20,539 nucleotides of DNA from Mikrocytos mackini (lineage: Eukaryota; Endomyxa; Ascetosporea; Mikrocytida; Mikrocytiidae). Shown here piece after piece: positions 1 to 17,737 of the stretch. Every line of letters begins with the position of its first letter. Within the stretch, counting starts at the first letter, position 1. The notes below the pieces were generated by a model. That model was not told the DNA's origin and searched no databases. It saw only the letters and a program-made list of their open reading frames with translations. The position numbers and the translations under genes are program-made. The stretch is taken from positions 1 through 20,539 of the forward strand of contig JASNJN010000469.1 in the NCBI GenBank assembly GCA_030180075.1. The letters are read 5' to 3'.

Positions 1-272
1 CGTTCTGTTGTTTGTGTAAATGTTTCAATCGATTTAGCTGAATCAAATACCTCTAACTCTTCATAAATTATCTCATTGAATTCCAAACTACCAGACTTAA
101 CTCCAATATTGTTTTTGTGAGAAGTTAAATTGTCATTTGGGGCATTTATGTTATCCGGATGAATATTGATAGAAACACCAGGAAATATCTTCGTATGGTC
201 TTTCTCAAGACTATACTTTGTAATTTTGTTTTTTATGGTGGGTGAACTTATGGTAGAAGGCGAAAGAGACAT
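1..272 (-). CDS. Partial hypothetical protein, runs off left edge
   Basis: On the minus strand this frame is open from an ATG at 272-270 (a stop lies directly upstream at 275-273) to the window edge, about 90 codons. The residues are Asn/Ser/Lys/Glu-rich and low in complexity, with no motif I recognise. The first 10-20 codons lie antisense to the start of the neighbouring retrotransposon gag, so the natural start may be elsewhere and the retroelement may have truncated or landed beside this gene. An open frame of this length in AT-rich DNA is suggestive but not proof of a gene. Function unknown. Confidence 0.3.
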   Translation of the reverse strand, partial: MSLSPSTISSPTIKNKITKYSLEKDHTKIFPGVSINIHPDNINAPNDNLTSHKNNIGVKSGSLEFNEIIYEELEVFDSAKSIETFTQTTE

Positions 273-3200
273 TCAAACTCTAGAGGAGATAAATGAAATC
301 ATGTCTAGCTACTTTGGCGAGACAAAGACCCCTACATTTTGGAGAAGTGAGTTGTTCCACCGTATTCAGCGAGTAGGAGAAGACGCGCGCGCATACGGGA
401 TAGAGTTGCGGCGCATAGTAGCAAACTGTGAGTTAGGTCAATTAGAAGAAGTGCTTGTCAGGGATTGGTTTATTGCCAACTTAAGAGACCCGATAGCACG
501 AAGGACTTTAACCATGAAGCCTCCCGAGAAGTTCGAGGATACAATAAACAATGCCTTCCAGATTGAAAGCTCGAACAAACCCCAGGGACAGACGGGGAAT
601 CCTATAGCAGGAAGGTTCGATAGTATGGGGGAAAGGAAAAGGGATGACAGTTACCGGCAGATGATTAACTGTGGTAAGTGTGGACAAAGACACTCAAGTA
701 GTCGCAAAGCCTGCCCTGCTTACAATACCAGATGCAGCCGTTGCAACAGGAATAGACACTTTGCAAGTATGTGTAGGATGCCAGAAGCCGCACTTAGGAG
801 TCAAAGACCGCCAAGAGGTCCCAGATACAATGAACGTCCTCGTGACGGTCCTAGGAATAGATTCCTAGAAGAAAATTCAAGTGAGGACGAACGAAGGTTC
901 AGACAAGGCCCACCAAAAGATGACTACTCTCCATACTCCTTTAGTGGAGATAAAGACTATCGTACCTTCTCAGTGAAAGGTAAAAAGAAAAGAACTTCAG
1001 AGAAAACACTCTGGTATAGGAAGAGACCTATGAAAGTCATAGTAGACACAGGGTCGGATGTTTCCATACTAAGTACAGAGACTTTGAAGCGGGAGAGAAT
1101 CTCAGAGAAACTCACAAAAGCCCACACCGTGATAAGGTGTTATAACGAGGCTAAAGTAAATGTGATAGGTACCACCAAATTAAAGGTGAGTTTTGGAAAA
1201 AGAGAGGAATTGATTGAATTCTTAGTAGTGGACAAAGGAGCCACGATAATCGGAGCCGAAGATGGTTTGAAATTGGGATGTTACAAATGGAACCAACCAA
1301 AGGAAGTCAGCCCCCTAAATAAGTACAGGAATATAAGGGTCTTGAATTATTGTCCGAAAGTTAGGTTTAAAATATATCTCAAGCAAGGTTACAGGCCCTG
1401 TATAGCTCGCGAACGTCCAATTCCATACGCCTTAGGTAACAAAGTCAATGAAGAATTAGAACGACTTGTAGACCAAGGAATAATAGTGCCAACGGAAAGC
1501 AGTGATTGGGTAAGCCCCATTGTAGTCGTGGCCAAGAAAAGCGGAGAGGTGCGAATTTGCGGCGACTTCCGTATGCTTAACAAAGCAATACAGGACGACA
1601 AATATCCTTTGCCAAGGATAGAAGATCCCCTGGCAAAGATAGAAGCCGATAGCAGGTTTTATGCTAAAATAGACTTAAAGTCTGCATATCACCAGATAAA
1701 ATTATCTGAGGAATCACAACCTTTGACGACAATTATAACGGCAAAGGGTACTTTTAAATATACGCGTATGCCATTTGGAATCAAATCGGCCCCAAGCGCA
1801 TTCCAACGGATCATTACTGAACTGTTAGGAAACAACAAAGGAATTCTGGTCTATCTAGACGATATCCTCATTTCAGCAAAGACTGAGAAGGAATACAGAC
1901 AAAGAGTAGAGTTGGTACATCGCAAGCTCAAAGAGGCCAACATCACCATCAATGACGAGAAATCCGAGCATAATCTCAGGACGGTGGACTGGTTAGGATA
2001 TGAAATAAGTGAGAAGGGAATCCGACCATCGCCCAAAAAGACAGCCGCAATCCTTGAATTGCATGAACCGTCCACAAAGAAAGAAGTGAGACAGGTACTT
2101 GGAACAATAAACTATTACTGTAGATTTGTGAAGAATATCGCAGCAATAGCAACTCCTTTATATGCTCTTCTAAAGAAAGAAAAGAAGTGGGATTGGGGAG
2201 CAAAAGAAAAGGAAGCCTTCAAACAACTGAAAACGGCAGTCGCAAAGACGTCGGCCGTAGCACCGTTCCAAACTAGCAACGAATTCCCGATGCGCCTGAG
2301 TCGCGATGCATGTGATCAAGGTATGGGTGCAGTTTTAGAACAGGTTCAGAAAGACGGAAACTACCAACCGGTAGTATATTGGTCCTCTCAATTTAAGAAC
2401 TATGAGAAAAACTATTCCATAGGAGAGAAGGAAGCACTAGCTTGTGTATCAGCAGTGCTGAAGATGAAAAGATATCTTCTAGGAAGACACTTTACCCTCA
2501 GAACAGACCACCGTGCATTAGTCACCTTACTATCTCAAAGTAAGATCAAACGGACGATAGCACGAGTAGAAAGATGGAGAGAAAAGTTGGCTTGTTTCAA
2601 TTACTCCATCGAACACTTGAAGGGAGNAGAAAATCAGATAGAAGAACTGTTATCGAGATCCCTCGTCGAGTACAACAATCAGAGTAAAACGATATGGGAG
2701 GAAATAGTTATGAACAACATAACAGAGTCGGAGAAGATAAGTCATCTGACATATGAGACAGAAATGTCCAAAGTCAGTGGAGAAAGTAAGAAGGGAAATT
2801 GGAACGAGAAACTTCAAAACGATAATAAAGAATACTACAGGAATAAGGATAACCTTACTGAAAACGAAGGGTTCCTATTCTACAAACGATATCGTTTTGT
2901 CCCGGCGATGAAAGCAAGAATGAACATCATCGAGGAAGCACATAAGCTACACCAAGGCATAGAGAAATCAAAGGCCAGAATACGTGAAAGATTCTGGTGG
3001 CCTGGATGGTATGCGGAAACTGAGACATACATAAAAGAGTGCCCAGTATGTCAGAAATTAGGTAGGATAAAAATCACTCGAGAGCCACCTTTAATAACAG
3101 TTCCTCTTCCGGATAAACCTTGGGACAAAGCCGCAATTGATCTCAAAGGGCCACTTGGTGTAGGCAAATACAAATTTTTACTGGTAGTCATGGACTATTA

Positions 3201-3993
3201 CAGTAAATGGCCAGAGATCATCGGCCTAAACTAGATATCAAGTGCGAGTATCAAAAACGCACTGATCTCTATATTCATTAGGCTAGGCTTACCAAATACC
3301 ATTGTCTCCGATAATGNTAAACAATTCGTGTCAAAGGAAACATCCCAATTCTGTAGGAAACTTGGCATAGAACATAGGCCGGTAGCACTATATGCACCCA
3401 GGCAAAATGGACTTGTAGAAAGGTTCAACCGGGTTATAAAAGAAAAACTAGAAGAGGCTGTAGAAAACAAATGGAATATCCAAGACACAATGTCCGCTCT
3501 TCTTTATAACTACAGAAGCACCCCTCACTCAACCACCCAAATATCCCCATTCGAGGCAATGTATGGCAGGAAGATGAATAACGAACTAGGTAAGCTAGTT
3601 CCTAGGGGGAGAGAAGAGAAGAAGGATGTGATCGACCGCGAAATGGTCGAAAGAAAGCAGGCAAAAATGAAATACAACTTTGATAAAAGAAAAGCCGCTT
3701 ATGATAAAAATAAAAAGATTGGCCAGGAAGTCTATATCAAAGATAAAGATGGGAAGTATTCCGGTCCGAAAAAAATAGTTAATAAAGGCAAAACATCGGT
3801 ATACCTAGGCTCCAAACAGAAATGGCCAATGGACCGAATAGCCGTGATCAAGTCAAAGAGGAGGTTTAAAAATAAAAGGGAAAATAAAAAGAGCTTAAGG
3901 CCCACGCATACTCCCAATGATGAAACGTTTAAGAGGGGAGATGTAGCAATGGAGTACCTTATAAGCCGTTACCTCATTGATCATATGCCATAA
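235..3993 (+). pseudogene. Ty3/gypsy (mag-like) Gag-Pol polyprotein with one in-frame TAG
   Basis: This is the replication polyprotein of an LTR retrotransposon, all in one frame that is open from 166. In residues numbered from the TTG at 166: gag remnant to about 160; two zinc knuckles at 169-203 (CX2CX3HX6C with a CPA signature, then CX2CX4HX4C); aspartic protease with D294-T-G; reverse transcriptase with YLDD at 563-566; RNase H (SRDAC, GEKEA and RTDHR motifs); integrase with an HHCC finger and a catalytic D992, D1049, E1085 triad in D,D35E spacing. A single TAG at 3232-3234 interrupts the integrase core, and the same frame then runs on to 3993. Bases 2627 and 3317 are N. The knuckle pattern is that of mag-type elements common in animals. 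The RNase H tail reads E-E-L-L-S-R where A-D-A-L-S-R is usual. The real gag N-terminus is missing: in-frame ATGs at 235 and 250 are only the first available. Confidence 0.9.
235..3993 (+). mobile_element. Truncated Ty3/gypsy retrotransposon (element 1)
   Basis: The coding core of a Metaviridae-type element. No repeat flanks it: the sequence left of about 235 reads as a different frame on the other strand, and the bases after the stop at 3993 show no polypurine tract or TG-starting LTR before the pogo-type MITE at 4052. It therefore appears truncated at the 5' end and possibly at the 3' end. Exact borders cannot be set by eye; the left junction lies somewhere between about 150 and 255. Confidence 0.75.
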
Positions 3994-6291: not shown

Positions 6292-7290
6292 TTACTTACT
6301 ATTCTTTCCTTTCCTTCCATTTTTTGTTTCTTCTCTCACCAGCAACTCATGTCCTTCTCCAAACAGCACTTCCACCTTTTCTCCCACTCCCTCAAAACAC
6401 TCATACTTCAGCGCTTCTGCAGCCGTAATTCTCTTCTCTACGTCCGGCTGCAGCATATCTTCCAGAAGTTTCACCACACCTTCTTCAATCCATTCAAAAG
6501 TCTTCTTAATGGATTCTTTCTCAAAGTAGAACTGAATTCTCTTCAACACTTTAATCTCGCTGTCTCCTCTGAACAGTGGCTTTCCTTTCAACATCTCTGC
6601 CATTACACAACCGAGAGCCCAAGTGTCTATTTTAGAACAGTACTTCTTTTCTCCTTTTAGAAGCTCTGGAGGTCTATACCAAGAAGTAACTACACTACCT
6701 GTGTAGCCCTTTATGTGCTCGTTAGTTTGTCGTGCGAGCCCGAAGTCGCCCAGGAACACGCCGCCTTCGCTGCTTATCATTACATTCGCAGGCTTTATGT
6801 CTCTGTGTATTACTTGGCATCGCATATGTAGGAAAGAAAGCGCTTTTAAGACGTTGAATATAATACATTTTGTGTCAGCGACTGATAAAGCGCCTTTTTT
6901 CTTTAATATAATTCCTGCTAAGTCGTACGGGTAATAGTCAAAGACTAAACAAAGGTTTGTGTTGTCTGCTTTTAGTCCTAAAGAAACAGATGTGGGCTTA
7001 GTGGGAGATATTGGCGACACAACGGGTGAACTGTCCAAGGTCAGCGACTCGTCTACTTTGAGACTCGAAACGCCCACTAGAATGTCTATTAATGGTACAA
7101 TGTTTTGGTGTCTTATTGCTTTTAAAATCTTTAGTTCCCTGATTATGTTTAGAGGAATTCCATTTTTAGTTTGGTTGTAGGAAAGTTTTTTAATTGCATA
7201 GAGTTTGTTGTCGTTGCCTTTCGCTTTATATACAGTGGCGTAGGTGCCCTTTCCTATCTTCTTTTGTACGACGTAGCTATTTTGCCCCAT
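6292..7290 (-). CDS. Transcription-type cyclin-dependent kinase (CDK9/CDK12-like)
   Basis: A 332-residue serine/threonine kinase of the CMGC group. Visible parts: glycine loop GKGTYATV (13-20), ATP-binding Lys34 in AIKK, cyclin-binding helix GIPLNIIRE (44-52) with Glu52, HRDIKPAN (162-169) with catalytic Asp164, DFG (182-184), activation-loop Thr197 at the position phosphorylated in CDK9, and VVTSWYRPPE (200-209). The GIP-type helix and the Y-D-L-A-G segment (122-126) are closer to the RNA polymerase II CTD kinases (CDK9/BUR1, CDK12/CTK1) than to CDK1 or CDK7. An insert of about 40 residues (73-111), rich in Ser-Pro/Thr-Pro, separates strands of the N-lobe and could be phosphorylated or bind a partner. 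The C-terminal tail is short and basic. It diverges from RPB7 with 28 bp between ATGs, which fits a shared role in Pol II transcription. The cyclin partner is not in the window. Confidence 0.88.
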   Translation of the reverse strand: MGQNSYVVQKKIGKGTYATVYKAKGNDNKLYAIKKLSYNQTKNGIPLNIIRELKILKAIRHQNIVPLIDILVGVSSLKVDESLTLDSSPVVSPISPTKPTSVSLGLKADNTNLCLVFDYYPYDLAGIILKKKGALSVADTKCIIFNVLKALSFLHMRCQVIHRDIKPANVMISSEGGVFLGDFGLARQTNEHIKGYTGSVVTSWYRPPELLKGEKKYCSKIDTWALGCVMAEMLKGKPLFRGDSEIKVLKRIQFYFEKESIKKTFEWIEEGVVKLLEDMLQPDVEKRITAAEALKYECFEGVGEKVEVLFGEGHELLVREETKNGRKGKNSK

Positions 7291-7318
7291 TCTAATTTTC
7301 GAAAGTTAAAATTTGAAA
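7291..7318. promoter_or_regulatory. 28-bp bidirectional promoter between CDK and RPB7
   Basis: Only 28 bases separate the kinase ATG (7290, minus) from the RPB7 ATG (7319, plus). The spacer is AT-rich with a TTCGAAAG core and an AAATTT-like run and no obvious TATA box. Such a gap cannot hold two separate promoters, so transcripts must overlap, start within the neighbour, or share one element. The shortness itself is typical of compact microsporidian gene islands. Confidence 0.6.
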
Positions 7319-7837
7319 ATGTTTCGAGTCATTGTCAGGACGCAACAAGTGGAGTTACACCCTTCTTACTTCGATAAATCGGCTGAAAACACGATAAAGT
7401 CTAAGATAGTCTCGGAACATAAAGGAACAGTTGATTCTAAATTTGGATATTGCATAAGTGTAATTGATTTTTATGCTATAGAGCACATATCAGTGACTGA
7501 GGATGGTTGTGCACAATTCTACGTTCGCTTTATAAGTCTACATTACTTACCTAACATAGGGGACATTGAACTGGCCTTTGTAACAGACCTACACGAGCAT
7601 GGCTTCTTTTGTGAAGTCGGTCCTGCTTCCATATTTGTAAATAAAAGCAACATTGGTGAATATTATAATTTTGTAGAGACAAACGATGAAAAAATGTTCA
7701 TTAACGAGATTAACGGTTCAAAAATAATAAAGGGAGCTTTGGTGAGATTAAAGATTTGTGGGACAAGCTTTCACTCTGGTAGATATGCAATCATAGGAAA
7801 GGTAAATGAGAATTCATTGGGTAAAATAGTTAATTAA
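7319..7837 (+). CDS. RPB7: DNA-directed RNA polymerase II subunit RPB7
   Basis: A 172-residue protein, the normal length for RPB7, which pairs with RPB4 to form the stalk of RNA polymerase II near the RNA exit channel. The N-terminal half is the RNP-like (tip) domain: it begins MFRVIVRTQQVELHPSYF and includes the conserved E-x-KGTVDSKFGYCISV segment. The C-terminal half is the S1/OB fold (GFFCEVGPASIFVNKSNI, then IKGALVRLKICGT and the closing A-I-I-G). I chose the ATG at 7319 because it aligns with the usual start; an in-frame TTG two codons upstream is not needed. It diverges from the CDK gene across 28 bp. Confidence 0.93.
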   Translation: MFRVIVRTQQVELHPSYFDKSAENTIKSKIVSEHKGTVDSKFGYCISVIDFYAIEHISVTEDGCAQFYVRFISLHYLPNIGDIELAFVTDLHEHGFFCEVGPASIFVNKSNIGEYYNFVETNDEKMFINEINGSKIIKGALVRLKICGTSFHSGRYAIIGKVNENSLGKIVN

Positions 7838-8868: not shown

Positions 8869-10097
8869 TTATATTTTCTTTTGTTTTCTAGGTCTGCCTA
8901 TTGGTTTTTTATTGTGCTTAATTACACTGTTCAATATATTTTTTATAATCACATTTTTTTTCGGTTCGTTGTTTGTTTCTTTGTTTATTTTAACCAACAT
9001 TCTAATAAAATCATCTATATCAACATTCGACACTATGTGTGTCAATTCTTCAAATAATTTCCGAATTTTTACATCAGTATTTCCTAAAGATAATAGTGAA
9101 TTTAACTTTGTTGTCAAAACGGCAATGTCATTAAAGGTTCCGATTTTTGCTTATGAAAAGTTGAAGGAAGTTGGGGGACATTTTTAACATGGTTCATATC
9201 AAAATCGTGATCTAAACCATAATTTATCAACTCATTATCGTCCATTTCAAATAAATTCTGATTTTCATACATAAGACGTTCTGTCTGATTGTTTTCTACG
9301 ACAACTCCCTGATATTGATTTTCTTTTTGAATATCTATTTCAAAAAACATAGGGACAGTTCTTCTCCATCTATCATGTACATATGCTAACAAATTGTCGC
9401 CTACTTCTCTTTTAATTAAATGACAACATGGTAGCCTGAAAAATGTATAGAATTTGCAACATATTGTTTTCGAAATTCTATTATCTTCATTTGTATGTGT
9501 GTAATGATCTATATTTCGCTTCATTAACTCCATTGCTTTAATCGAAGTATTGTGAAATAAGAGTTCTGGTATTTCACTGTAGTTTTTCCTCAAAAGTCTT
9601 TTGTACATTTTGCTATCATCATCAACAAAACGCCCTCTCTTAAACAATATTAGTTCGCTTAATACATTGATACATTTTGCTATTGACATTTTCTTATATG
9701 TCTCGTCTTTAATCTCTGAAAACATGGACTCTGAGCGGGACGTTGTCTGTTGAAAGAAATTAAACGAATCGGGCTTAAAACAATGGACAAATTGTTCTTT
9801 AATCCCATCCCAATTATCCATAAAATAATGGTATACGTTTTCGTTTATATCCCTTATTTTGTTTAAATATATCGTATACTGCTCAGATGATTTAGAATAA
9901 CTTATGAGTTCTAATGTCCTAATTAATATCTCCCTATCCGAGCTCGTAACATTATATTTTCGCAATGTTATTGTGCGACGATAAATTTGATGCACATGAA
10001 AAAGACAAAGATTAGGGTGTGCAATTGGAAATATTTCTGATAAAACCCGACGCTCTTTAAGATCTTTATCAGTGTAATAATTTATCACAGTTTCCAC
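8869..10097 (-). pseudogene. 5'-truncated, frameshifted MULE transposase
   Basis: The C-terminal portion of a Mutator-like transposase. The first frame (10097-9114, GTG at its open end) carries the second catalytic Asp region (TDKDLKERRVLSEIFP) and the following L-C-L-F-H-V-H motif, an S-R-S-E-S-M segment, and a SWIM-type zinc motif (F-Y-T-F-F-R-L-P-C-C-H-L-I) near residues 222-234. The second frame (9117-8869) supplies the C-terminal tail ending in an AT-hook-like GRPRKQKK. They join if one base is added to the plus-strand A4 run at 9116-9119. The N-terminal half, with the first catalytic Asp and any FLYWCH or DNA-binding region, is absent: upstream of 10100 there is a T-rich run and unrelated sequence. 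It cannot encode an active transposase as it stands. MULE terminal repeats were not found. Confidence 0.82.
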
Positions 10098-10327
10098 ATT
10101 GTTTTTTTTTTTAATTCATGATAACATTTTAATTATTTAGTATAACCAATGTGACCATTTCTCGCCGTTATATCTGCTCGTGAAATTTAATATTTAAATA
10201 ACCTTTATGTTATTACTCCGCTTTAATTAAATAAGCCTTTCCAAAGGAGTTTAAACGAGACTTTGTCATTTGAACGGGATTGGTCTTCTGGCTCCATGCC
10301 TTAAATACTTCCCAATTTATTATAAAC

Positions 10328-10862
10328 AGATTTCATGAATCTTTTATATAACTTCCTATTAAACAGTATCCGATTTAATCGGATTTGTGTTTTTATTTTT
10401 GAAACTCTGGCACACATTCCCTTGTTTCAATTATAAGGGTGCCCCATACTGGTTTTTCTAACCGAGGCTATAGTGTGTTTTTTCAGATAAATGGTATGTT
10501 CCCATGTACCTTTTGCAACCTTGTGCCCTTTTATAGATTGTAGGGCTTTGTTGCTACTCAGTTATGGAACATACCATTTTTGGAAAGTTAACTTTCCAGT
10601 TTAAGGAATTTCCTGGGAAATGCTTAATACATGTTCTATTGCTTAGAACTTTGAGCACATTGCATTAATGTTTATTTTAGGCATGTTTTGCCATTTTCAA
10701 AACATCGGCTACTTAATGTAGCCTTGTAGCTTTTCAAAGACTGAATCCTTGTTTCAAAAATAAACAGTGTTTCAGAAATAGACTCACTTATAGTGAGGAT
10801 TACCTATTCAAAGTTTTGATAACATTATAGGATTTTTTAAAAATTAATCACTTGCAGTGATT
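10328..10862. other. Dense array of perfect hairpins, mostly five-base loops
   Basis: About 535 bp with no protein frame but near-continuous local self-complementarity. Hairpins with a loop of exactly five bases: AGATT/AATCT 10328-10342; ATCCGA/TCGGAT 10368-10384; GGTT/AACC 10451-10463 (inside a 6-bp outer stem, 10445-10477); GTTCTA/TAGAAC 10633-10649; ACATT/AATGT 10657-10671; GGCA/TGCC 10680-10692; GGCTAC/GTAGCC 10707-10723; CTCAC/GTGAG 10783-10797; AATCAC/GTGATT 10846-10862. Others: nested GGCA + CCCTT stems 10409-10443; a perfect 14-bp stem 10489-10502 with 10566-10579 enclosing GCAAC/GTTGC and GCCC/GGGC stems; a 16-bp palindrome 10582-10597; ATTTC/GAAAT 10608-10621; CTGAA/TTCAG around GTTT/AAAC 10741-10775; CCTAT/ATAGG 10803-10831. 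About 70% of bases fall in one of these units. Function unknown; either an RNA fold or a hairpin-bearing DNA element. Confidence 0.7.
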
Positions 10863-10881
10863 TATTGGCTTGAGACATTTG

Positions 10882-11126
10882 GATACATTCCACTCTGCCC
10901 TGTCGTATTAAGGTCATAGACCCTCGCGTTTTAGCGTTTACGGGCCGGTAGTTGTTATGTCCCCCTGGATTCGTGGAGCCGTTGGGCCCCTGTTTTCCAG
11001 GCTACTACGGTTCGACCGAGTTCGAACCTGCTTCAGCCGGTTTAGGCCTTTCGCCCAGCATTGACCCTAGCCCCTTTACGGTGGGGCTGTCAGGTGTGCT
11101 GGTATTCGTACCTCTCGGTTTTTTTT
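10882..11126 (+). ncRNA. GC-rich structured block ending in T8, candidate RNA gene 3' end
   Basis: A GC-rich island in very AT-rich surroundings. Stems: GGTC/GACC 10912-10922; CCTG(TTTTC)CAGG 10989-11001; GGTTCGA/TCGAACC 11009-11028; GGC(CTTTC)GCC 11045-11055; a long nested arm in which CCAGCA 11055-11060 pairs with TGCTGG 11097-11102, GAC 11063-11065 with GTC 11089-11091, and AGCCCC 11069-11074 with GGGGCT 11083-11088; and GGTA(TTCG)TACC 11101-11112, which shares GG with the preceding arm and has a UUCG tetraloop only when read on the plus strand. T8 follows at 11119-11126, as after many RNA polymerase III genes. I could not match it to rRNA, SRP RNA, RNase P/MRP RNA, a tRNA or a spliceosomal RNA. 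It may be the 3' part of the same unit as the hairpin array upstream. A GC-rich transposon end is an alternative. Confidence 0.4.
11119..11126 (+). terminator. T8 run, possible Pol III terminator
   Basis: Eight consecutive T's directly follow the GC-rich structured block and its UUCG hairpin. Runs of four or more T's terminate RNA polymerase III. In DNA this AT-rich a T run alone is weak evidence; its position at the sharp edge of the GC-rich island is what makes it notable. Confidence 0.35.
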
Positions 11127-11708
11127 AAATTTTAAAATTTCTCAACCTACAAACCATACCTAAAATCATTTATGAAATTTAATACGATATTAAATAATAA
11201 TGTGACTTAGTGAGAAAATTTAATACACCACAAAAAATTAGTTTAGATCTAAACCATGCTAAATGAGTGAAAAATGATATTTAACTACAATTATACACGT
11301 GCGCATATAAATTTAATCAAAAATTAACGAAAAAATTTGCACTAAATATTTTCTATTTATTAAAACTAACAGATTAATGTGATTAAAAGATAATATTTCA
11401 ATATCTAATCAAATAAATACACTGTAAAAAACTCAGATCTTCAACCATATGTCATTTTTGAACATTTTTCGTGACAAATTTAAGTTTTTTGTGTTTTTGC
11501 TACTCATGAAAATTTTAAAAAATATTTTTGAAAATATTTTTTTGTTCCCCAAAACAATGTCTACTTTTTCATTTTATTTAGAAAATTTTCTTTTCAAAAA
11601 TTTAACCACCAAAAAATCGACGGAACAAACCACGGAATTGACCCCCAAAAAACATTGAATTTTCGAACCCTGGTTCGAAATTAATAAAAGGGTTTGATAT
11701 GAATTTTT
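11127..11708. other. AT-rich intergenic region with palindromes
   Basis: No convincing gene. A 69-codon Phe/Lys-rich frame at 11449-11658 follows base composition only. Palindromes present: AAATTTTAAAATTT at 11127-11140, an 8-bp stem ATTTAATA(CGA)TATTAAAT near 11176, GTTTAGATCTAAAC near 11241, and a 9-bp stem TTTCGAACC/GGTTCGAAA at 11661-11680. The last lies about 30 bp beyond the stop of the minus-strand gene at 11709 and could shape its transcript 3' end. Confidence 0.5.
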
Positions 11709-12170: not shown

Positions 12171-13307
12171 TTATTGGATTCCTTCTTTTTCAATGAAATA
12201 CCGTTGTTTCATCCACTCTTCCTGATTGTTTTCCACAAACATATCCGCAATATCATTACTGTGTAGTTTGTATAGGGAATAAATATACACGCAGTCATCC
12301 CCAAACTCAACAAATTTTAACCTACCTCTATATTCTATCCCTAAAGTTCTTTCTCTAACAAATTCAAAGCAATGATATTCTCGATTAAGTTGGATTTCTT
12401 GTACTTTTTTATTCCTGTCGTTGTAACACAAAAGTACGTTATTGTTTTGCCAATTACCATCCAAAAATAATGTATGTTACTCTTATCTTGCAGGATGCTA
12501 CGAATAAGACCTGCTGTTATAAATTTCTTACTTATATTTCCTGTTTTCCAATTTATTGCCAAAATAATGTCTTTATCAGTCATATAATTTTTTGACTTGG
12601 CTACCATTATAAAGTAATTTGTATTTCTCAATATATAGTGGAATTTCATGTTAATCTGTAAACTTTCAAATGAAAATACTTTTCTTTCGTGGGTTAAAGG
12701 GTTAATAACTAGGAATTTGTTCTGTGTTACTAAATAACAGATATAATCTATTCCTTCATCGTGGGCTATTATTTTTCCGTTTACAAAGTTTGGTTGAATA
12801 GGCGATGGAATTGATTTATCCAAAGACCATGCTTGAGCAACACTGATCTCTGTAATGGTTTCAATATTTCGGGTTCTGGAATTTGTTGTTTGTTGGTGTG
12901 AGTCTTCAATAAACCTTAAACTGAGTGCTGGACATCGGCTGGTCAAAGTAGTAAGTGCTCTGTATCTTGTCTCTATATATTCCCGTTTCCTTTCTAGATG
13001 TGTTCTCCTGGTCTCTTCCTGTTCTATTAGATCGTCAATCCATCTTAGTACATTTACCCTTTCCAAACTAACAATCGGTTCATTCTCTTCGTTCTCCTTC
13101 CAATACCAAGGCACTGGGCTCATACCGTCACACATTCCACACAGGACACTCTACCTCCAACCCCGTATTCTTGTTCCAACACTCCTTACAAATTAAATCC
13201 CCACATCTTAACAACACAGGCTTTACTTTCTCTTTCTTACAGAACCTCCTGCCACAGCATTGCAGAGCGAAGTTTGGTTGCATGATGTAATGTTCTTCTG
13301 TTTTCAT
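12171..13307 (-). CDS. RING-finger protein with propeller-like domain, frames broken
   Basis: Starts at the ATG at 13307 (a GTG at 13319 is open but not needed). The first frame holds a degenerate RING finger: Cys pairs, then R-C-G-D-L-I-C-K-E-C-W (Asp where His is usual) and E-C-P-V ahead of the frame break. The break near 13138 lies in a TG repeat, and two added bases would supply the final Cys and join to the frame 13135-12341. That frame has a Glu/Arg-rich coiled-coil-like helix (residues about 28-60) and then short beta-strand repeats. A second break at the plus-strand A5 run 12463-12467 needs one base to join the frame 12464-12171. RING proteins are typically ubiquitin ligases; substrate and partners are unknown. 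It could be a pseudogene or an intact gene with sequencing indels. Confidence 0.65.
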
Positions 13308-13329
13308 TTTTAAGTACACTCACTCAAAA
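13308..13329. promoter_or_regulatory. 22-bp spacer between two divergent RING genes
   Basis: The ATGs at 13307 (minus) and 13330 (plus) are 22 bp apart. Both genes start with a RING finger but their sequences are different, so this is a head-to-head pair of distant paralogues, not an inverted duplication. The spacer holds an A/T run and a CACTCACTC repeat, with no TATA box evident. Confidence 0.5.
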
Positions 13330-13441: not shown

Positions 13442-13654
13442 TGTCGTACATCGAAGTAAATATGAATCGATTATTTATAATTGATTAGGAGTTAAATAAG
13501 AATAAGTAATTATTATTAAGAAAAATAGAATACATAAATATATATAAATGTTTATAAATAATTATAATGACACAGCACAAGGCAATTTAAGTAGTCATAG
13601 ATCGTTATACGACAGTTTCATCATGACAGGGCACCTGCCACCCCTGCCACGGCA
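13442..13654 (+). repeat. Left LTR of element 2
   Basis: 213 bp, starting TGTCGTACATCG and ending CCACGGCA. AT-rich 5' half with a TATATATAAATG stretch near 13536-13550 that could serve as TATA box; the 3' third is GC-richer and contains CACCTGCCACCCCTGCCACG. The gag frame is open from an ATG at 13548 inside this LTR. Confidence 0.95.
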
Positions 13655-15602
13655 TTATGACGTCATAGCCGAGATAAATGCGGCTACCCCGAAGGGAGTA
13701 CCCTTCAGTCAACTGAGGATGAACACCAGTACGCTCTTATTGTCATCCTCATGTTCCCCCGCCGCCCTGATCAAGGAAATCGGCATATCTCCCACAATAA
13801 TAGATTTTAATTTCAAACACAAAAATGAGAAGGCGAATTTCACATACACACCGCCTAATACTACTATTAACATTCAGAAGTCAATGACTGTACTCAATTC
13901 TATCAGTGACCAGGATATCTTTCAATGGGAAGCGGAATTCCGCAATACAGTCACAGCGTGCCGTTGGGATGAGTCAACGTCGAACCACGTACTCGAATCC
14001 GTCACGGCTAACGAATCACACAGTCTATATCTTGACAAAGAAACCACAGAAGCTAAATTGGAGGCAATATTTCAGTATAAGTACAACGAAACGAGCGCCT
14101 TGAAGCTCCAAACCGAATTAAGTTCTGTGAAACAGTTTAAAGTGCCAACAGTAGCCATTTACATGACATGTTTAAGCGAACTAACTCGCAGATTGTCAAT
14201 AGTACACAACTGGTCAGAAAGCGACCGAGAAAACAAAATAGAAGAATGTTTCTATAATGGACTTACGCGTAGAACGCAGCTGGAAATGTCCAAATTGAAC
14301 GTAACAAACGTTGGACAGATGTACGAGACGATACATAAAACAGAGAATACAATACTCTCACAGTTAAGTACCCGAAGTCTACATCAACGAACTCAAGTTA
14401 TTCGTCCAGGTATGAGGAAGATAAAACCCTGGAACAACAGAACAGAGTTTGCGAACACTCACTCTAGCTTCTCCAGACAAAACACCAACGGACAGCAAAG
14501 AGGAAACACTTTCAGACCGTTTGGGAACTTCCAGAATAGAAACTCGGAGCACCCAAATGTCCAGAACAGACAGGGATACCGAAATTCTACATATGGACAA
14601 CAGGGACAAGCCTCATACAGACCTTGGAGTCACAATAATGGAAACAGATCAAATTTCCGAGGGCGTTACGGAAACCAGAGCCGGCAGAACCACTGGCATA
14701 ATGGTAACGGAAGCCAAGGAAACCAACAACAAGGTTCTGATAACAATAAAGATAACAAAAACGACTCATTCAACAGTGGAATAAACTGTATCAGGGAGAA
14801 ACCTAAGTCCCCTCGAGTCCTTTCAATTAGGACTACTCTTAAAGACACAAAGATTCACACCATAATTGACACAGGAGCAGCCTTCTCATACATACCCAGC
14901 GCTCTGGTCCCCAAACTAAAGATACAACCAAAGAAGGTGGACCCTCTAGAAGCCGAAATGGCCAATGGTGTCACAATCAGAGTAAACGAAGTAGCAGAAG
15001 AAACACTCTGCATCGCCAATGACAAAATACACCACTACAGAGTGTCTCTACGAGTCTTACATGCAAAAACGGAGTCAATCATATTGGGAATGGATTTCCT
15101 ACAGGCAAACAAGTGCCTTATAGACCTTGAAGGAAACAAAATAACCGTGGATGGAACGTACCACGAATTCAACACTCAACAAGATAAAACAATGGATTTT
15201 GACGCGGAATTGAGCAAAAGAACGAAAATCTACCAATGTACAGAGAAAGACAACTGCATCAATCCGAAAGAAACTTGCATGAACCTCATATCTTACTACA
15301 AGACCAATAACCCAGTTCTCGGGAGAATACCAGGAACGGAATTCCGGATAACTCTACACAGGCCCTTTACGCCGGTTCTAAAGCAATACCCAGTCCCGTA
15401 TAAACTCCAAGATGATGTTAAAAGGGAGATTACAAGACTAAAAGAACTAGGAGTAATAGAAGACTCAGAAGCTTTCCATTACTCACCTGCCTTTTCCATT
15501 CTGAAGAGAAATGGCAACATCAGGTTGGTAATCGATTACCGTGACCTAAACAGTTGTACAGACAAACTTCATTATCCGATACCAAAATACAAGAGAGTTT
15601 AG
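13548..15602 (+). CDS. Element 2 Gag-protease and start of reverse transcriptase
   Basis: A 684-codon frame. Gag occupies about residues 60-410. Its C-terminal nucleocapsid region (about 305-410) lacks any CCHC zinc knuckle and is instead a tract rich in Asn, Gln, Gly and Arg with RGR/FRGR-type motifs, presumably binding RNA through basic and polar residues. The protease follows with I-I-D441-T-G-A and an I-L-G-M-D-F motif. RT begins near residue 600 (P-V-P-Y, then R-L-V-I-D-Y-R-D-L-N and Y-P-I-P), and the frame ends at 15602 in the middle of the RT palm. Possible starts are ATGs at 13548 and 13623 (both in the LTR) or 13719 (first ATG beyond it). If the TATA-like site near 13540 is used, the 13548 ATG would be at or before the cap site, so 13623 or 13719 is more likely. 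Confidence 0.88.
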   Translation: MFINNYNDTAQGNLSSHRSLYDSFIMTGHLPPLPRHYDVIAEINAATPKGVPFSQLRMNTSTLLLSSSCSPAALIKEIGISPTIIDFNFKHKNEKANFTYTPPNTTINIQKSMTVLNSISDQDIFQWEAEFRNTVTACRWDESTSNHVLESVTANESHSLYLDKETTEAKLEAIFQYKYNETSALKLQTELSSVKQFKVPTVAIYMTCLSELTRRLSIVHNWSESDRENKIEECFYNGLTRRTQLEMSKLNVTNVGQMYETIHKTENTILSQLSTRSLHQRTQVIRPGMRKIKPWNNRTEFANTHSSFSRQNTNGQQRGNTFRPFGNFQNRNSEHPNVQNRQGYRNSTYGQQGQASYRPWSHNNGNRSNFRGRYGNQSRQNHWHNGNGSQGNQQQGSDNNKDNKNDSFNSGINCIREKPKSPRVLSIRTTLKDTKIHTIIDTGAAFSYIPSALVPKLKIQPKKVDPLEAEMANGVTIRVNEVAEETLCIANDKIHHYRVSLRVLHAKTESIILGMDFLQANKCLIDLEGNKITVDGTYHEFNTQQDKTMDFDAELSKRTKIYQCTEKDNCINPKETCMNLISYYKTNNPVLGRIPGTEFRITLHRPFTPVLKQYPVPYKLQDDVKREITRLKELGVIEDSEAFHYSPAFSILKRNGNIRLVIDYRDLNSCTDKLHYPIPKYKRV
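13656..13667. promoter_or_regulatory. 12-bp palindrome with CRE core at LTR/internal junction
   Basis: TATGACGTCATA is a perfect palindrome starting two bases after the left LTR, in the place where a primer-binding site is expected. TGACGTCA is the consensus for CREB/ATF-type bZIP factors. No TGG start of a tRNA-complementary site is visible there. Whether it works in priming, dimerisation or transcription cannot be told from sequence. Confidence 0.4.
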
Positions 15603-17737
15603 TAGGCGCAAGAGGTTCGAAAGTGTTCAGTCAACTCGACCTCAATATGGGTTATTACCAGGTACCCGTGAAAGAACGCAGTAGACCACTAACCTCCTTC
15701 ATTCTAGACGGACAAACGTTCCAATTCAAAAGAATGCCTTTCAGTCTGTGCAATGCTTCATTCTTCTTTCAACAAGCCCTTTCAAGGATATTTAGAGATA
15801 TGGAATACGTACAAGTTTATATAGATGACCTACTCATTTTTAGTCCCACAGAATACGACCATTACAAACACCTTACCGAAGTTCTAACCAGATTAAAGGA
15901 GAACAACATATCAATTAACTTCGAAAAGTCAGAGTTTACAAAGAAATCAGTGAAATATCTGGGAGTAATCTTAAGCGAGGAAGGAATCAAAGCCGACGTG
16001 AGTCGAGCAAGCGGATTAGACACGATAATCCCAAAAAATAAGCGACAGGTAGCAAAAGTTTTAGGGATAATAAACTGGTTCAAACCATACCTGGAGAACT
16101 GCTCCCTAATTACTTCATTTCTATCTGAAAAGCTACGAAAAGACGGAACTTTCTACTGGACAAACGAGGACACTTACGAGTTAGAAGAGATCACAAAGAC
16201 AATCAAACGTCAAACACTCCTAAATTTTCCCGACTTAGACGGCGAATTTCTTCTGAGAACGGATGCGTCAGAAAGAGGAATTGGCGCAATACTAACCCAA
16301 GGAAGTAAACTGATAGGGTATTTCTCGTACAAATTCTCACAAACAGAAGCCAATTATTCGATAGTGGAGAAGGAGAGCTTTGCGATAGTAAAAGCACTGA
16401 TCTACTTCAAACGAATACTCTTACTCGTCAAGGTTAGGATCCAAACGGATAATAGAAACTCAATTTTTCAGGGACCACTTACAAAAAGAATTAACCGTTG
16501 GAAAGTTTTACTGGAAGAGTTCGACATAGAGTTGGACACTATTAAAGGGATTGAAAATGTCGGAGCCGACGCCCTTTCAAGACTTTACCTCATTACGGAA
16601 CCAGCCAATAAGCTTTCTATAGATCACGAAAGGATAAGAGAAACTCAACAATCAGCGTACGACGAAATAAAGGGATACATAGCGTCGACCAAATCAGCTG
16701 ACGACTCTGATGTGGAGTTATACTATGATGACGCAGACCGGGTAATAATACCGGAAGGCTACGCCCCAGAGTTTCTACAAATACTCCACAACGAATTAGT
16801 ACACCCAGGAAGCACAGTGTTATACATGACAATCGGGAAATACTACAATATCCCAGGAATTAAGCGAAAGATTGACACACTTACAAGGAATTGCCTCGAT
16901 TGCCAACTAAACAAAGAACACAGAGCTATTTATGGCAAAGTTCAAGGAGGATTACACACAGAAGTTCCCTTTGAAATGATATCGACAGATATCGTCGGAC
17001 CATTCCAAACCAAAGATTTTATAACAAACAGAAAAGAAGAGAAGTTCTACATATTAACAACCTCAGACATCGCATCTCGCTGGACGGAGATAGCCTTAAT
17101 GTTTGATTTATCAAGTAACACCACGATAAAGACACTGGAAAGATGCTGGATAAAGGTGCTCGGAATGCCCACTAAAATCCTGAGCGATCGCGGCTCCCAA
17201 TTCACAAGCTCAAACTACGAAGACTTCTGTAGTGAACTAGGAATACAAATAAAGCTCTGCTCCCCACAGAACCCCACGGCGAATAGCGTCAGTGAAAGGA
17301 GAAACAAGGAGATAGGGTTAATATTGAGACTTGCAAAGAAAGAACCATTAGAAAAGATACCTAAACTGGTCAGAAGACGACTAAACTTCTGTGCAAACCG
17401 AATAACCAAGCTGTCTCCCTTCGAGATAATACACAAATTTAGCGCACTTGACTGCATGAAGAGAGGATTAACTGCAGAAATCGCAACATGTTTCGAGAGA
17501 CGGAAGGAAGCTATGGAAAAAAGCCAAATACAAAGAAACAAAAGACGTATAGACGGAAAGTTTTATGTAGGAGGAAAAGTTTTTAAGAGAGCAGTCACGA
17601 CTGATAAGACTCAGGCCAAATGGAAAGGGCCTTATGTGATAACGAAGATAATTAAACAGGACGTATTAGAAATCGATGAAGGCACCCGGATATGCCAACA
17701 CAATATAAAGAACTTCCGGCCATTCGAAGGAGAGTAG
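15554..17737 (+). CDS. Element 2 Pol: RT, RNase H, integrase
   Basis: Continues the polyprotein in the next frame; the TTG at 15554 is only where the frame opens, and the protein should be entered at the A4 run 15584-15587. Numbered from 15554: RT palm with Y-I-D-D at 89-92; RNase H with Asp237 (R-T-D-A-S), an E-K-E motif, Q-T-D and G-A-D-A-L-S-R; integrase zinc finger (H-N-E-L-V-H ... C-L-D-C), catalytic Asp479, Asp545 and Glu581 in D,D35E spacing, and a C-terminal basic and beta-rich domain ending K-N-F-R-P. All catalytic residues are present. The stop codon lies inside the polypurine tract. One base added at 15584-15587 makes the whole polyprotein continuous; the break falls mid-RT, where programmed frameshifting is not expected. 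Confidence 0.92.
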   Translation: MYRQTSLSDTKIQESLVGARGSKVFSQLDLNMGYYQVPVKERSRPLTSFILDGQTFQFKRMPFSLCNASFFFQQALSRIFRDMEYVQVYIDDLLIFSPTEYDHYKHLTEVLTRLKENNISINFEKSEFTKKSVKYLGVILSEEGIKADVSRASGLDTIIPKNKRQVAKVLGIINWFKPYLENCSLITSFLSEKLRKDGTFYWTNEDTYELEEITKTIKRQTLLNFPDLDGEFLLRTDASERGIGAILTQGSKLIGYFSYKFSQTEANYSIVEKESFAIVKALIYFKRILLLVKVRIQTDNRNSIFQGPLTKRINRWKVLLEEFDIELDTIKGIENVGADALSRLYLITEPANKLSIDHERIRETQQSAYDEIKGYIASTKSADDSDVELYYDDADRVIIPEGYAPEFLQILHNELVHPGSTVLYMTIGKYYNIPGIKRKIDTLTRNCLDCQLNKEHRAIYGKVQGGLHTEVPFEMISTDIVGPFQTKDFITNRKEEKFYILTTSDIASRWTEIALMFDLSSNTTIKTLERCWIKVLGMPTKILSDRGSQFTSSNYEDFCSELGIQIKLCSPQNPTANSVSERRNKEIGLILRLAKKEPLEKIPKLVRRRLNFCANRITKLSPFEIIHKFSALDCMKRGLTAEIATCFERRKEAMEKSQIQRNKRRIDGKFYVGGKVFKRAVTTDKTQAKWKGPYVITKIIKQDVLEIDEGTRICQHNIKNFRPFEGE

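What the first reader, a model, noticed from the sequence alone, without database searches (positions are those of the whole stretch)
10328..10862. Unrecognised tract of serial perfect hairpins with five-base loops
Nine hairpins with loops of exactly five bases, seven of them with 5-6 bp perfect stems, sit in 535 bp together with a 14-bp nested stem and a 16-bp palindrome. A random sequence of this size would give roughly one stem of 5 bp or more at that exact loop size (about 1 in 600-1000 per position), so the excess is large. Several stems hold G-C pairs (GGCTAC, ATCCGA, GTTCTA, CTCAC), so AT-richness does not explain it. The loops differ in sequence while their length is constant, which points to selection on shape. 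No protein frame is present. Candidates: a long structured non-coding RNA, a source of RNAi substrates, a hairpin-bearing DNA element (as in fungal mitochondrial double-hairpin elements or foldback transposons), or a remnant of an RNA replicon. I know of no described family with this layout.
Basis: partly seen in the sequence, partly recalled or inferred. Interest (0 to 1): 0.88.

Follow-up and report, generated by a model that had tools for sequence, protein, structure and literature searches.

The report
Jumping structured-RNA repeat in oyster parasite
The hairpin tract is the middle of a 1-kilobase non-coding mobile repeat, most likely copied through RNA to dozens of places in the genome of an oyster parasite, whose hairpins were kept by evolution while its sequence drifted.

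Summary
The hairpins are real and beyond chance (7 five-base-loop stems of 5-6 bp against 0.84 in shuffles; fold z -7.7), but they are the middle of a larger repeat of about 1,040 bp (window 10104-11142). The host is the rhizarian oyster parasite Mikrocytos mackini, not a microsporidian. The held assembly has 56 places with its core motif and 61 with its tail motif; the main subfamilies are about 75% identical. The repeat has sharp ends, no long coding frame, an oligo-A tail on the minus strand and, in 9 of 28 copies, target duplications of 9-16 bp. A nearly identical uninterrupted site exists. This points to target-primed reverse transcription: a SINE-like retroposon read from the minus strand. 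A fold predicted from one subfamily predicts compensatory changes in the other (sense strand: 21 seen, 6.0 expected; other folds weaker), so shape was selected. Probable helpers are the genome's REL-endonuclease LINEs, which carry similar short A tails but, in the ends sampled, no shared tail sequence. It is a new family, unusually long and structured: a new variant of a known kind.

The parts
10104..11142 (-). whole retroposon copy, subfamily A1 (sense strand = minus); ends good to a few bases, the left one being ambiguous within the T-run
   Evidence: in the full-length copies among loci L002-L030, matches stop within 10096-10124 and 11126-11146, with different flanks; the uninterrupted site in L065 departs after 10103
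10870..11118 (-). 5' head of the sense RNA; its inner part, 10904-11063, differs at 9 of 159 sites between the A1 and B majority sequences
   Evidence: bins; alignment; fold z of 10870-11125 is -4.3 on the sense strand and -2.0 on the other
11002..11038 (-). core motif used to count copies: 56 places in 13.6 Mb with up to 3 mismatches, 0 for the reversed control
10489..10579 (-). long hairpin: 14-bp stem 10489-10502 with 10566-10579, inner helices between
   Evidence: (I5)
10581..10598 (.). palindromic hairpin TGGAAAG-TTAA-CTTTCCA; its six innermost pairs do not vary in the 21 copies aligned
10707..10723 (-). hairpin GGCTAC-loop-GTAGCC; compensatory changes at 10711/10719 and 10712/10718
10633..10649 (-). 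hairpin with a five-base loop; compensatory changes at 10635/10647 and 10637/10645
10368..10384 (-). hairpin (7-bp stem, three-base loop); compensatory changes at 10369/10383 and 10371/10381
10328..10342 (-). hairpin with a five-base loop
   Evidence: sense sequences of the three subfamilies
10657..10671 (-). hairpin with a five-base loop in this copy
10783..10797 (-). hairpin (6-bp stem, three-base loop)
10846..10862 (-). hairpin (7-bp stem, three-base loop)
11127..11142 (.). near-palindrome at the sense 5' end (GAAATTTTAAAATTTC in most other A1 copies printed)
10136..10141 (-). ACTAAA at the place of a polyadenylation-signal-like hexamer A[A/C/T]TAAA shortly before the A tail; the signal reading is recalled and inferred
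   Evidence: found by pattern in 28 of 32 copies, 22-24 bases before the tail in 25 of them; the four ends printed without a pattern match also contain it
10104..10112 (-). oligo-A tail of the sense strand (T-run on the + strand)
9114..10097 (-). left flank: MULE-transposase-like ORF, cut in its 5' part by the insertion
   Evidence: PF10551, E 0.015, below the curated cut-off; same stretch uninterrupted in L065

Best explanation
The tract is the body of a non-autonomous, SINE-like retroposon of about 1.04 kb. Shown by sequence: copies at many unrelated sites, common ends, no long coding frame, an oligo-A tail on the minus strand, target duplications of 9-16 bp in part of the copies, and a fold kept with compensatory changes while the sequence diverged by about 25%. 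Inferred: the minus strand is transcribed and given an A tail; the RNA folds into a conserved 5' head and a chain of hairpins; the reverse transcriptase and REL-type endonuclease of resident LINEs take it, nick AT-rich DNA, prime on the A tail and copy it in. The fold most likely serves capture by the LINE protein (or ribosome docking, or stability of the RNA).
For: Copies: 42 and 45 matches from two query copies, both capped; 56 core and 61 tail motif places, reversed controls 0. Sharp ends, different flanks. Target duplications: own 5' and 3' flanks match at score 9 or more in 9 of 28 copies, against 22 of 1,376 other pairs. Uninterrupted site: L065 equals the window over 9966-10103 (99.3%), then continues differently. 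Coding: longest ATG frame 37-62 aa in seven of eight strand-copies checked, 108 aa in one. Fold: z -5.2 to -9.8 for four whole copies, both strands. Helpers: LINEs with an RT domain and a REL-like C-terminus (by eye); A7-A10 tails, counted by eye, in 10 of 12 LINE ends fetched; no APE endonuclease family found in the held contigs.
Against: The window copy lacks a matching duplication, as do 18 others of the 28 (19 of 28 score below 9); several 5' flanks match the 3' flank of another contig exactly, so wrong joins or recombination are common. No LINE with the element's 3' sequence was found. G-U and A-C mismatches are equally frequent (122 and 116; 8 and 6 between majority sequences), and whole copies fold equally well on both strands, so pairing alone does not name the strand and pairing in DNA is not excluded. 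In one search the A1-to-B fold without G-U gave only 10 against 5.7 (shuffle fraction 0.061), the A1-A2 comparison of the tract gave no significant excess of double changes, and 10104-10327 gave none. No transcript data. 1.04 kb is long for a SINE (recalled).
Confidence: 0.78

Rival explanations
1. A foldback or MITE-like DNA transposon, or an element moving as single-stranded DNA, whose hairpins act as DNA.
For: Symmetric G-U and A-C counts; both strands of whole copies fold about equally well; foldback-type elements exist in this genome, some nested in copies of this one (by eye).
Against: The ends are not inverted repeats of each other; one end is an oligo-A/T run; target duplications vary from 9 to 16 bp.
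Confidence: 0.08
2. Retrocopies of a cellular structured non-coding RNA (a processed-pseudogene family) whose parent gene lies elsewhere.
For: Structured, A-tailed, mostly full-length copies; the 5' head is very conserved.
Against: No Rfam match at gathering level and only weak ones far below the families' cut-offs in permissive searches; the four further core-motif places that I fetched are partial element copies. A parent outside the 13.6 Mb held is possible.
Confidence: 0.08
3. Genomic copies of an RNA replicon or satellite RNA that replicates as RNA and is now and then reverse transcribed by LINEs.
For: Global fold on both strands, no long coding frame, A tail.
Against: Nothing requires RNA replication; one exact 20-base pattern found nothing in viral contigs, which is a thin test.
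Confidence: 0.03
4. The hairpins are a by-product of AT-rich sequence with no selection.
For: The region is about 31-34% G+C.
Against: Dinucleotide shuffles and the covariation test.
Confidence: 0.01

Closest known systems
EhSINE1 of Entamoeba histolytica (PMC2996970, passages seen)
   Same: Non-coding, polyadenylated retroposon of a protist, no precursor small RNA identified, flanked by target duplications, with a variable number of short internal repeats (26-27 bp there; an 18-bp-like unit, 1-4 times, in subfamily B here), thought to use a LINE (EhLINE1).
   Different: 500-600 bp there, about 1,040 bp here; the term 'secondary structure' does not occur in that paper; no sequence comparison was made.
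SINEs in general (tRNA-, 7SL- or 5S-headed; recalled)
   Same: Head, body and A-rich tail; mobilised in trans; target duplications of varying length.
   Different: No tRNA or Rfam head; longer than usual; the RNA is structured over most of its length.
REL-endonuclease LINEs of the same genome (R2/R4/Dong-like; clade by eye, recalled)
   Same: Short A tails (7-10 A) after an AT-rich 3' end; LINE 3' ends run directly into element 3' pieces in contigs C709 and C591.
   Different: No shared 3' sequence in the 12 ends fetched; the LINEs code for RT.

Membership tests
SINE (non-autonomous LINE-mobilised retroposon) | dispersed copies with common ends and unrelated flanks | tested here: met
SINE (non-autonomous LINE-mobilised retroposon) | target-site duplications of varying length | tested here: met
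   9 of 28 own pairs at score 9 or more against 22 of 1,376 other pairs; 19 of 28 without one
SINE (non-autonomous LINE-mobilised retroposon) | A-rich or simple-repeat 3' tail | tested here: met
SINE (non-autonomous LINE-mobilised retroposon) | no coding capacity | tested here: met
   (one plus-strand frame of 108 aa in L054 only, among four copies)
SINE (non-autonomous LINE-mobilised retroposon) | length under about 600 bp (recalled) | tested here: not met
   32 copies of 947-1,078 bp, three of them incomplete
SINE (non-autonomous LINE-mobilised retroposon) | internal Pol III promoter and small-RNA-derived head | tested here: inconclusive
   no tRNA, no Rfam family; a B-box-like GGTTCGAACTC seen by eye only; runs of T inside the sense strand speak against Pol III
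SINE (non-autonomous LINE-mobilised retroposon) | 3' end shared with a partner LINE (stringent type only) | tested here: not met
   none of the 12 LINE ends shares it, nor do L062 and L063; other LINE families of the genome were not examined
SINE (non-autonomous LINE-mobilised retroposon) | mobilised by a LINE | not testable with these tools
   only indirect: similar A tails and two LINE-element junctions
Foldback / TIR DNA transposon | terminal inverted repeats | tested here: not met
LTR retrotransposon or solo LTR | TG...CA ends and fixed 4-6 bp duplication (recalled) | tested here: not met
Known structured RNA of Rfam 15, including self-splicing introns | match at or above a family's gathering score | tested here: not met
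   searches list only matches far below the gathering scores
RNA replicon / viroid-like RNA | replication through RNA, circular or multimeric RNA | not testable with these tools
   no RNA reads available
EhSINE family | sequence homology | not tested
   EhSINE sequences were not compared

The most novel reading that the evidence does not exclude
A retroposon class in which the whole 1-kb RNA is a selected three-dimensional machine: the nearly invariant 5' head and the hairpin chain together form a new functional RNA (for example a LINE-protein or ribosome trap, or a ribozyme-like module) without any cellular parent, so that the element is a structured RNA lineage of its own, spreading through borrowed LINE enzymes.
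Probability: 0.2. Interest if true: 0.82.

Novelty: new variant of a known kind. Interest (0 to 1): 0.5.

Why it matters
The M. mackini genome paper lists 17,843 unclassified repeats and no SINE row in its table, and the word SINE does not occur in it (PMC10245619, passages). This element fills part of that gap with a mechanism, looks recent (A1 copies 98-99% alike; an occupied and an uninterrupted version of nearly the same site), and offers a natural test of how RNA shape affects retroposition: two subfamilies, a quarter of the sequence different, fold kept. It also shows that serial hairpins in raw sequence can flag a mobile RNA that the ORF, Pfam and Rfam searches run here did not show.

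Tried and rejected
Rfam at gathering and permissive thresholds: nothing near a cut-off. tRNA scan: none. SRP RNA, group II domain V and HDV-like resemblances were considered by eye and dropped, since Rfam has such families and gave nothing. G-U versus A-C asymmetry to name the strand: no signal. LINE tail sharing: my first reading of C708 was wrong and was corrected. The LINE copies of C710 and C216 end in their own tail; C708/C709 hold a LINE 3' end followed by a piece of the element's tail, and C591 holds the same arrangement with another LINE. Template switching and insertion of a LINE into a truncated copy both fit; neither contig holds the core motif, but the fetched part of C591 ends inside the LINE at the contig end, and the LINE start in C709 was not fetched. 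Tail-only copies as 5' truncations: several look like later insertions of other elements (by eye), so no truncation count is claimed. A parent RNA gene: four further core-motif places fetched are partial element copies. Viral contigs, one 20-base pattern: none.

Papers: PMC10245619, PMC11069148, PMC9998036 and PMC2996970 were seen as passages found by terms; the others only as search listings. None of the listings of searches names this element; no search aimed at its sequence was possible, so this does not prove that none exists.

Full report
Observation. In window 10328-10862, 7 perfect stems of 5 bp or more enclose exactly five bases, against 0.84 in dinucleotide shuffles; 11 have stems of 4 bp or more, against 3.10. 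Three of the seven are longer stems with three-base loops, so the constant loop size is partly a way of counting. In seven copies from three subfamilies, loops of 3, 5 and 7 all exceed their shuffles; loop 5 ranges from 3 to 7 against about 1 and does not stand out in L012 and L059. Bases 10320-10870 fold at z -7.7 on the plus and -6.6 on the minus strand, with 0 of 100 shuffles as good on either.

Host. The kinase frame at 6292-7290 matches a protein of transcriptome GAHX01, listed at 100% identity over 332 aa (one residue differs in the sequence printed). PMC9998036 lists GAHX01000001.1 as the Mikrocytos mackini transcriptome (passage). Mikrocytos is a rhizarian (Endomyxa, Ascetosporea, Mikrocytida); M. 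mackini infects Pacific oysters (passage). The genome papers report 37% repeats and 346 genes with MULE-transposase domains (PMC11069148), and 17,843 unclassified repeats, 1,730 LINEs, no SINE row and no identifiable Argonaute or Dicer (PMC10245619).

The unit. A search of the window's own assembly (13.6 Mb in 733 contigs held; published assemblies are 15.4 and 49.7 Mb) gave 42 matches with the window copy and 45 with a diverged copy, the window or query itself included; both lists are capped. In full-length copies the match stops within 10096-10124 and 11126-11146, and the flanks differ. A 37-base core motif occurs 56 times and two versions of the tail motif 39 and 22 times, with 0 for the reversed controls; a few tail places are not element copies, for example those in C708 and C709. 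Among 32 aligned copies (29 full, 3 nearly full) there are two main subfamilies, 73-78% identical to each other: A (A1 98-99% within; one copy at 94%; A2 at 85-89%) and B (86-98% within).

How it moves. The plus-strand left end is a run of T, that is, an A tail of 5-10 on the minus strand in the 28 copies measured. The last bases of the 5' flank recur after the 3' end: score 9 or more in 9 of 28 own pairs, against 22 of 1,376 other pairs. The duplications are 9-16 bp, the right edge being ambiguous where the A tail begins. Of the 22 other pairs, two are in truth the two ends of one interrupted or split copy (L019; L028 with L061), and four are exact matches of 12-17 bases between different contigs (L006 with L002, L017 with L004, L023 with L018, L027 with L055). 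The flanks of many copies, the window copy included, are therefore probably joined wrongly by assembly, or were exchanged by recombination. A near-identical site without the element exists: C26 matches window 9600-10100 at a rounded 100%, and its fetched part L065 matches 9966-10103 at 99.3% and then continues differently. The left flank is a weakly MULE-transposase-like frame. Duplications of varying length, an A tail and common ends are the signature of target-primed reverse transcription (established knowledge), so the sense strand is taken to be the minus strand. In the sense strand a hexamer A[A/C/T]TAAA precedes the A tail in the 28 copies matched by pattern (15 AATAAA, 10 ACTAAA, 3 ATTAAA), by 22-24 bases in 25 and 26-31 in three, where some flank may be counted in; the four unmatched ends also contain it. 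Calling it a polyadenylation signal is inference.

Selection on the fold. To avoid circularity I predicted the structure from one subfamily's majority sequence and scored it on another's, with a null in which the same substitutions were placed at random 1,000 times. For whole copies folded on the sense strand, 17 pairs (A1 to B) and 21 pairs (B to A1) changed on both sides and stayed Watson-Crick, against 5.8 and 6.0; on the plus strand 13 and 11, against 5.7 and 5.8; without G-U pairs 10 (fraction of nulls 0.061) and 13. The head (10870-11125) gave 2 against 0.15 in five of six folds and 0 in the sixth, and its unchanged pairs do not exceed the null. Against the reading: 10104-10327 gave no excess of double changes, and between A1 and A2 the tract gave 2-4 against about 2. 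In helices found on both strands by alignment folding (a circular set), 34 of 291 sites differ between A1 and B, against 104 of 328 positions unpaired in all three structures. G-U and A-C mismatches are equally frequent, so that test leaves the strand open. The sense strand is favoured by the A tail, the hexamer, the better fold of the head (z -4.3 against -2.0) and the higher compensatory count. Whole copies fold at z -5.2 to -9.8, with neither strand consistently better (four copies, 40 shuffles each).

The head. Window 10904-11063 differs at 9 of 159 sites between the A1 and B majority sequences; the nine 80-base bins from 10104 to 10823 differ at 14-46%, the bin 10824-10903 at 20% and the bin 11064-11143 at 13%. 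No Rfam family or tRNA matches it. Four core-motif places that were not in the first lists (L066-L069) are partial element copies; none looks like a separate parent gene.

Helpers. RT domains are abundant (150 scored matches); the APE-type endonuclease families PF14529 and PF03372 gave no match in the held contigs. A 246-aa LINE C-terminus with a PD-(D/E)xK-like pattern (by eye) has 151 matches from 150 scored candidates. A 1,167-aa frame in C710 has RVT_1 at E 1.9e-20. Ten of 12 LINE 3' ends fetched carry a run of 7-10 A, counted by eye, like the element; L080 is interrupted and L089 shows none. Another LINE family (L062, L063) ends in AAAT-like repeats and has no significant similarity to the element. 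In C709 (and C708, apparently the same site) and in C591, a LINE 3' end runs directly into a 3' piece of the element. This fits template jumping by the LINE enzyme from element RNA to LINE RNA, or LINE insertion into a truncated copy; I cannot decide.

Verdict. A SINE-like retroposon family of unusual length with a selected RNA fold, most likely mobilised by REL-endonuclease LINEs. Shown: family, ends, A tail, duplications in part of the copies, uninterrupted site, fold conservation between subfamilies. Inferred: transcription of the minus strand, the LINE partner, the role of the fold. It works like EhSINE1 of Entamoeba as described in the passages seen; no kinship is claimed.

Noticed in passing
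window 166-3993 and 13548-17737, + strand: Two LTR-retrotransposon polyproteins (RT, RNase H and integrase-type domains; protease clear only in the second), each spread over two frames in this copy.
   Followed up: partly
window 11425-11679: A short interspersed repeat of about 255 bp right of the element, with 38 further places listed at 77-90% identity, most starting at the same base (capped list).
   Followed up: no
L014, L018, L019, L021, L022 (inserts inside element copies): Inserts of 0.6-1.1 kb, foldback-like by eye, with inverted ends made of short repeats in the first three, are nested in copies of the retroposon.
   Followed up: partly
L030, L055, L059 and other B copies: An internal unit like TTATTTTTGAAACACTG occurs 1-4 times, varying between copies.
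   Followed up: partly
G000:C709 (L078) and G000:C591 (L099): LINE 3' ends joined directly to 3' pieces of the retroposon, same orientation both times; possible template-switch products.
   Followed up: partly
L071 and L091 (C225, C298): A 38-41 base piece of the element tail sits at the end of a stretch of 516 aligned bases, 96% identical between the two, of unknown kind.
   Followed up: no
window 6292-7290 (-) and 7313-7837 (+): A protein kinase frame and a frame with an Rpb7/Rpc25-type N-terminal domain, head to head about 22 bp apart.
   Followed up: partly
window 13128-13319 (-): A short frame with RING-like zinc-finger matches below the Pfam cut-offs.
   Followed up: no
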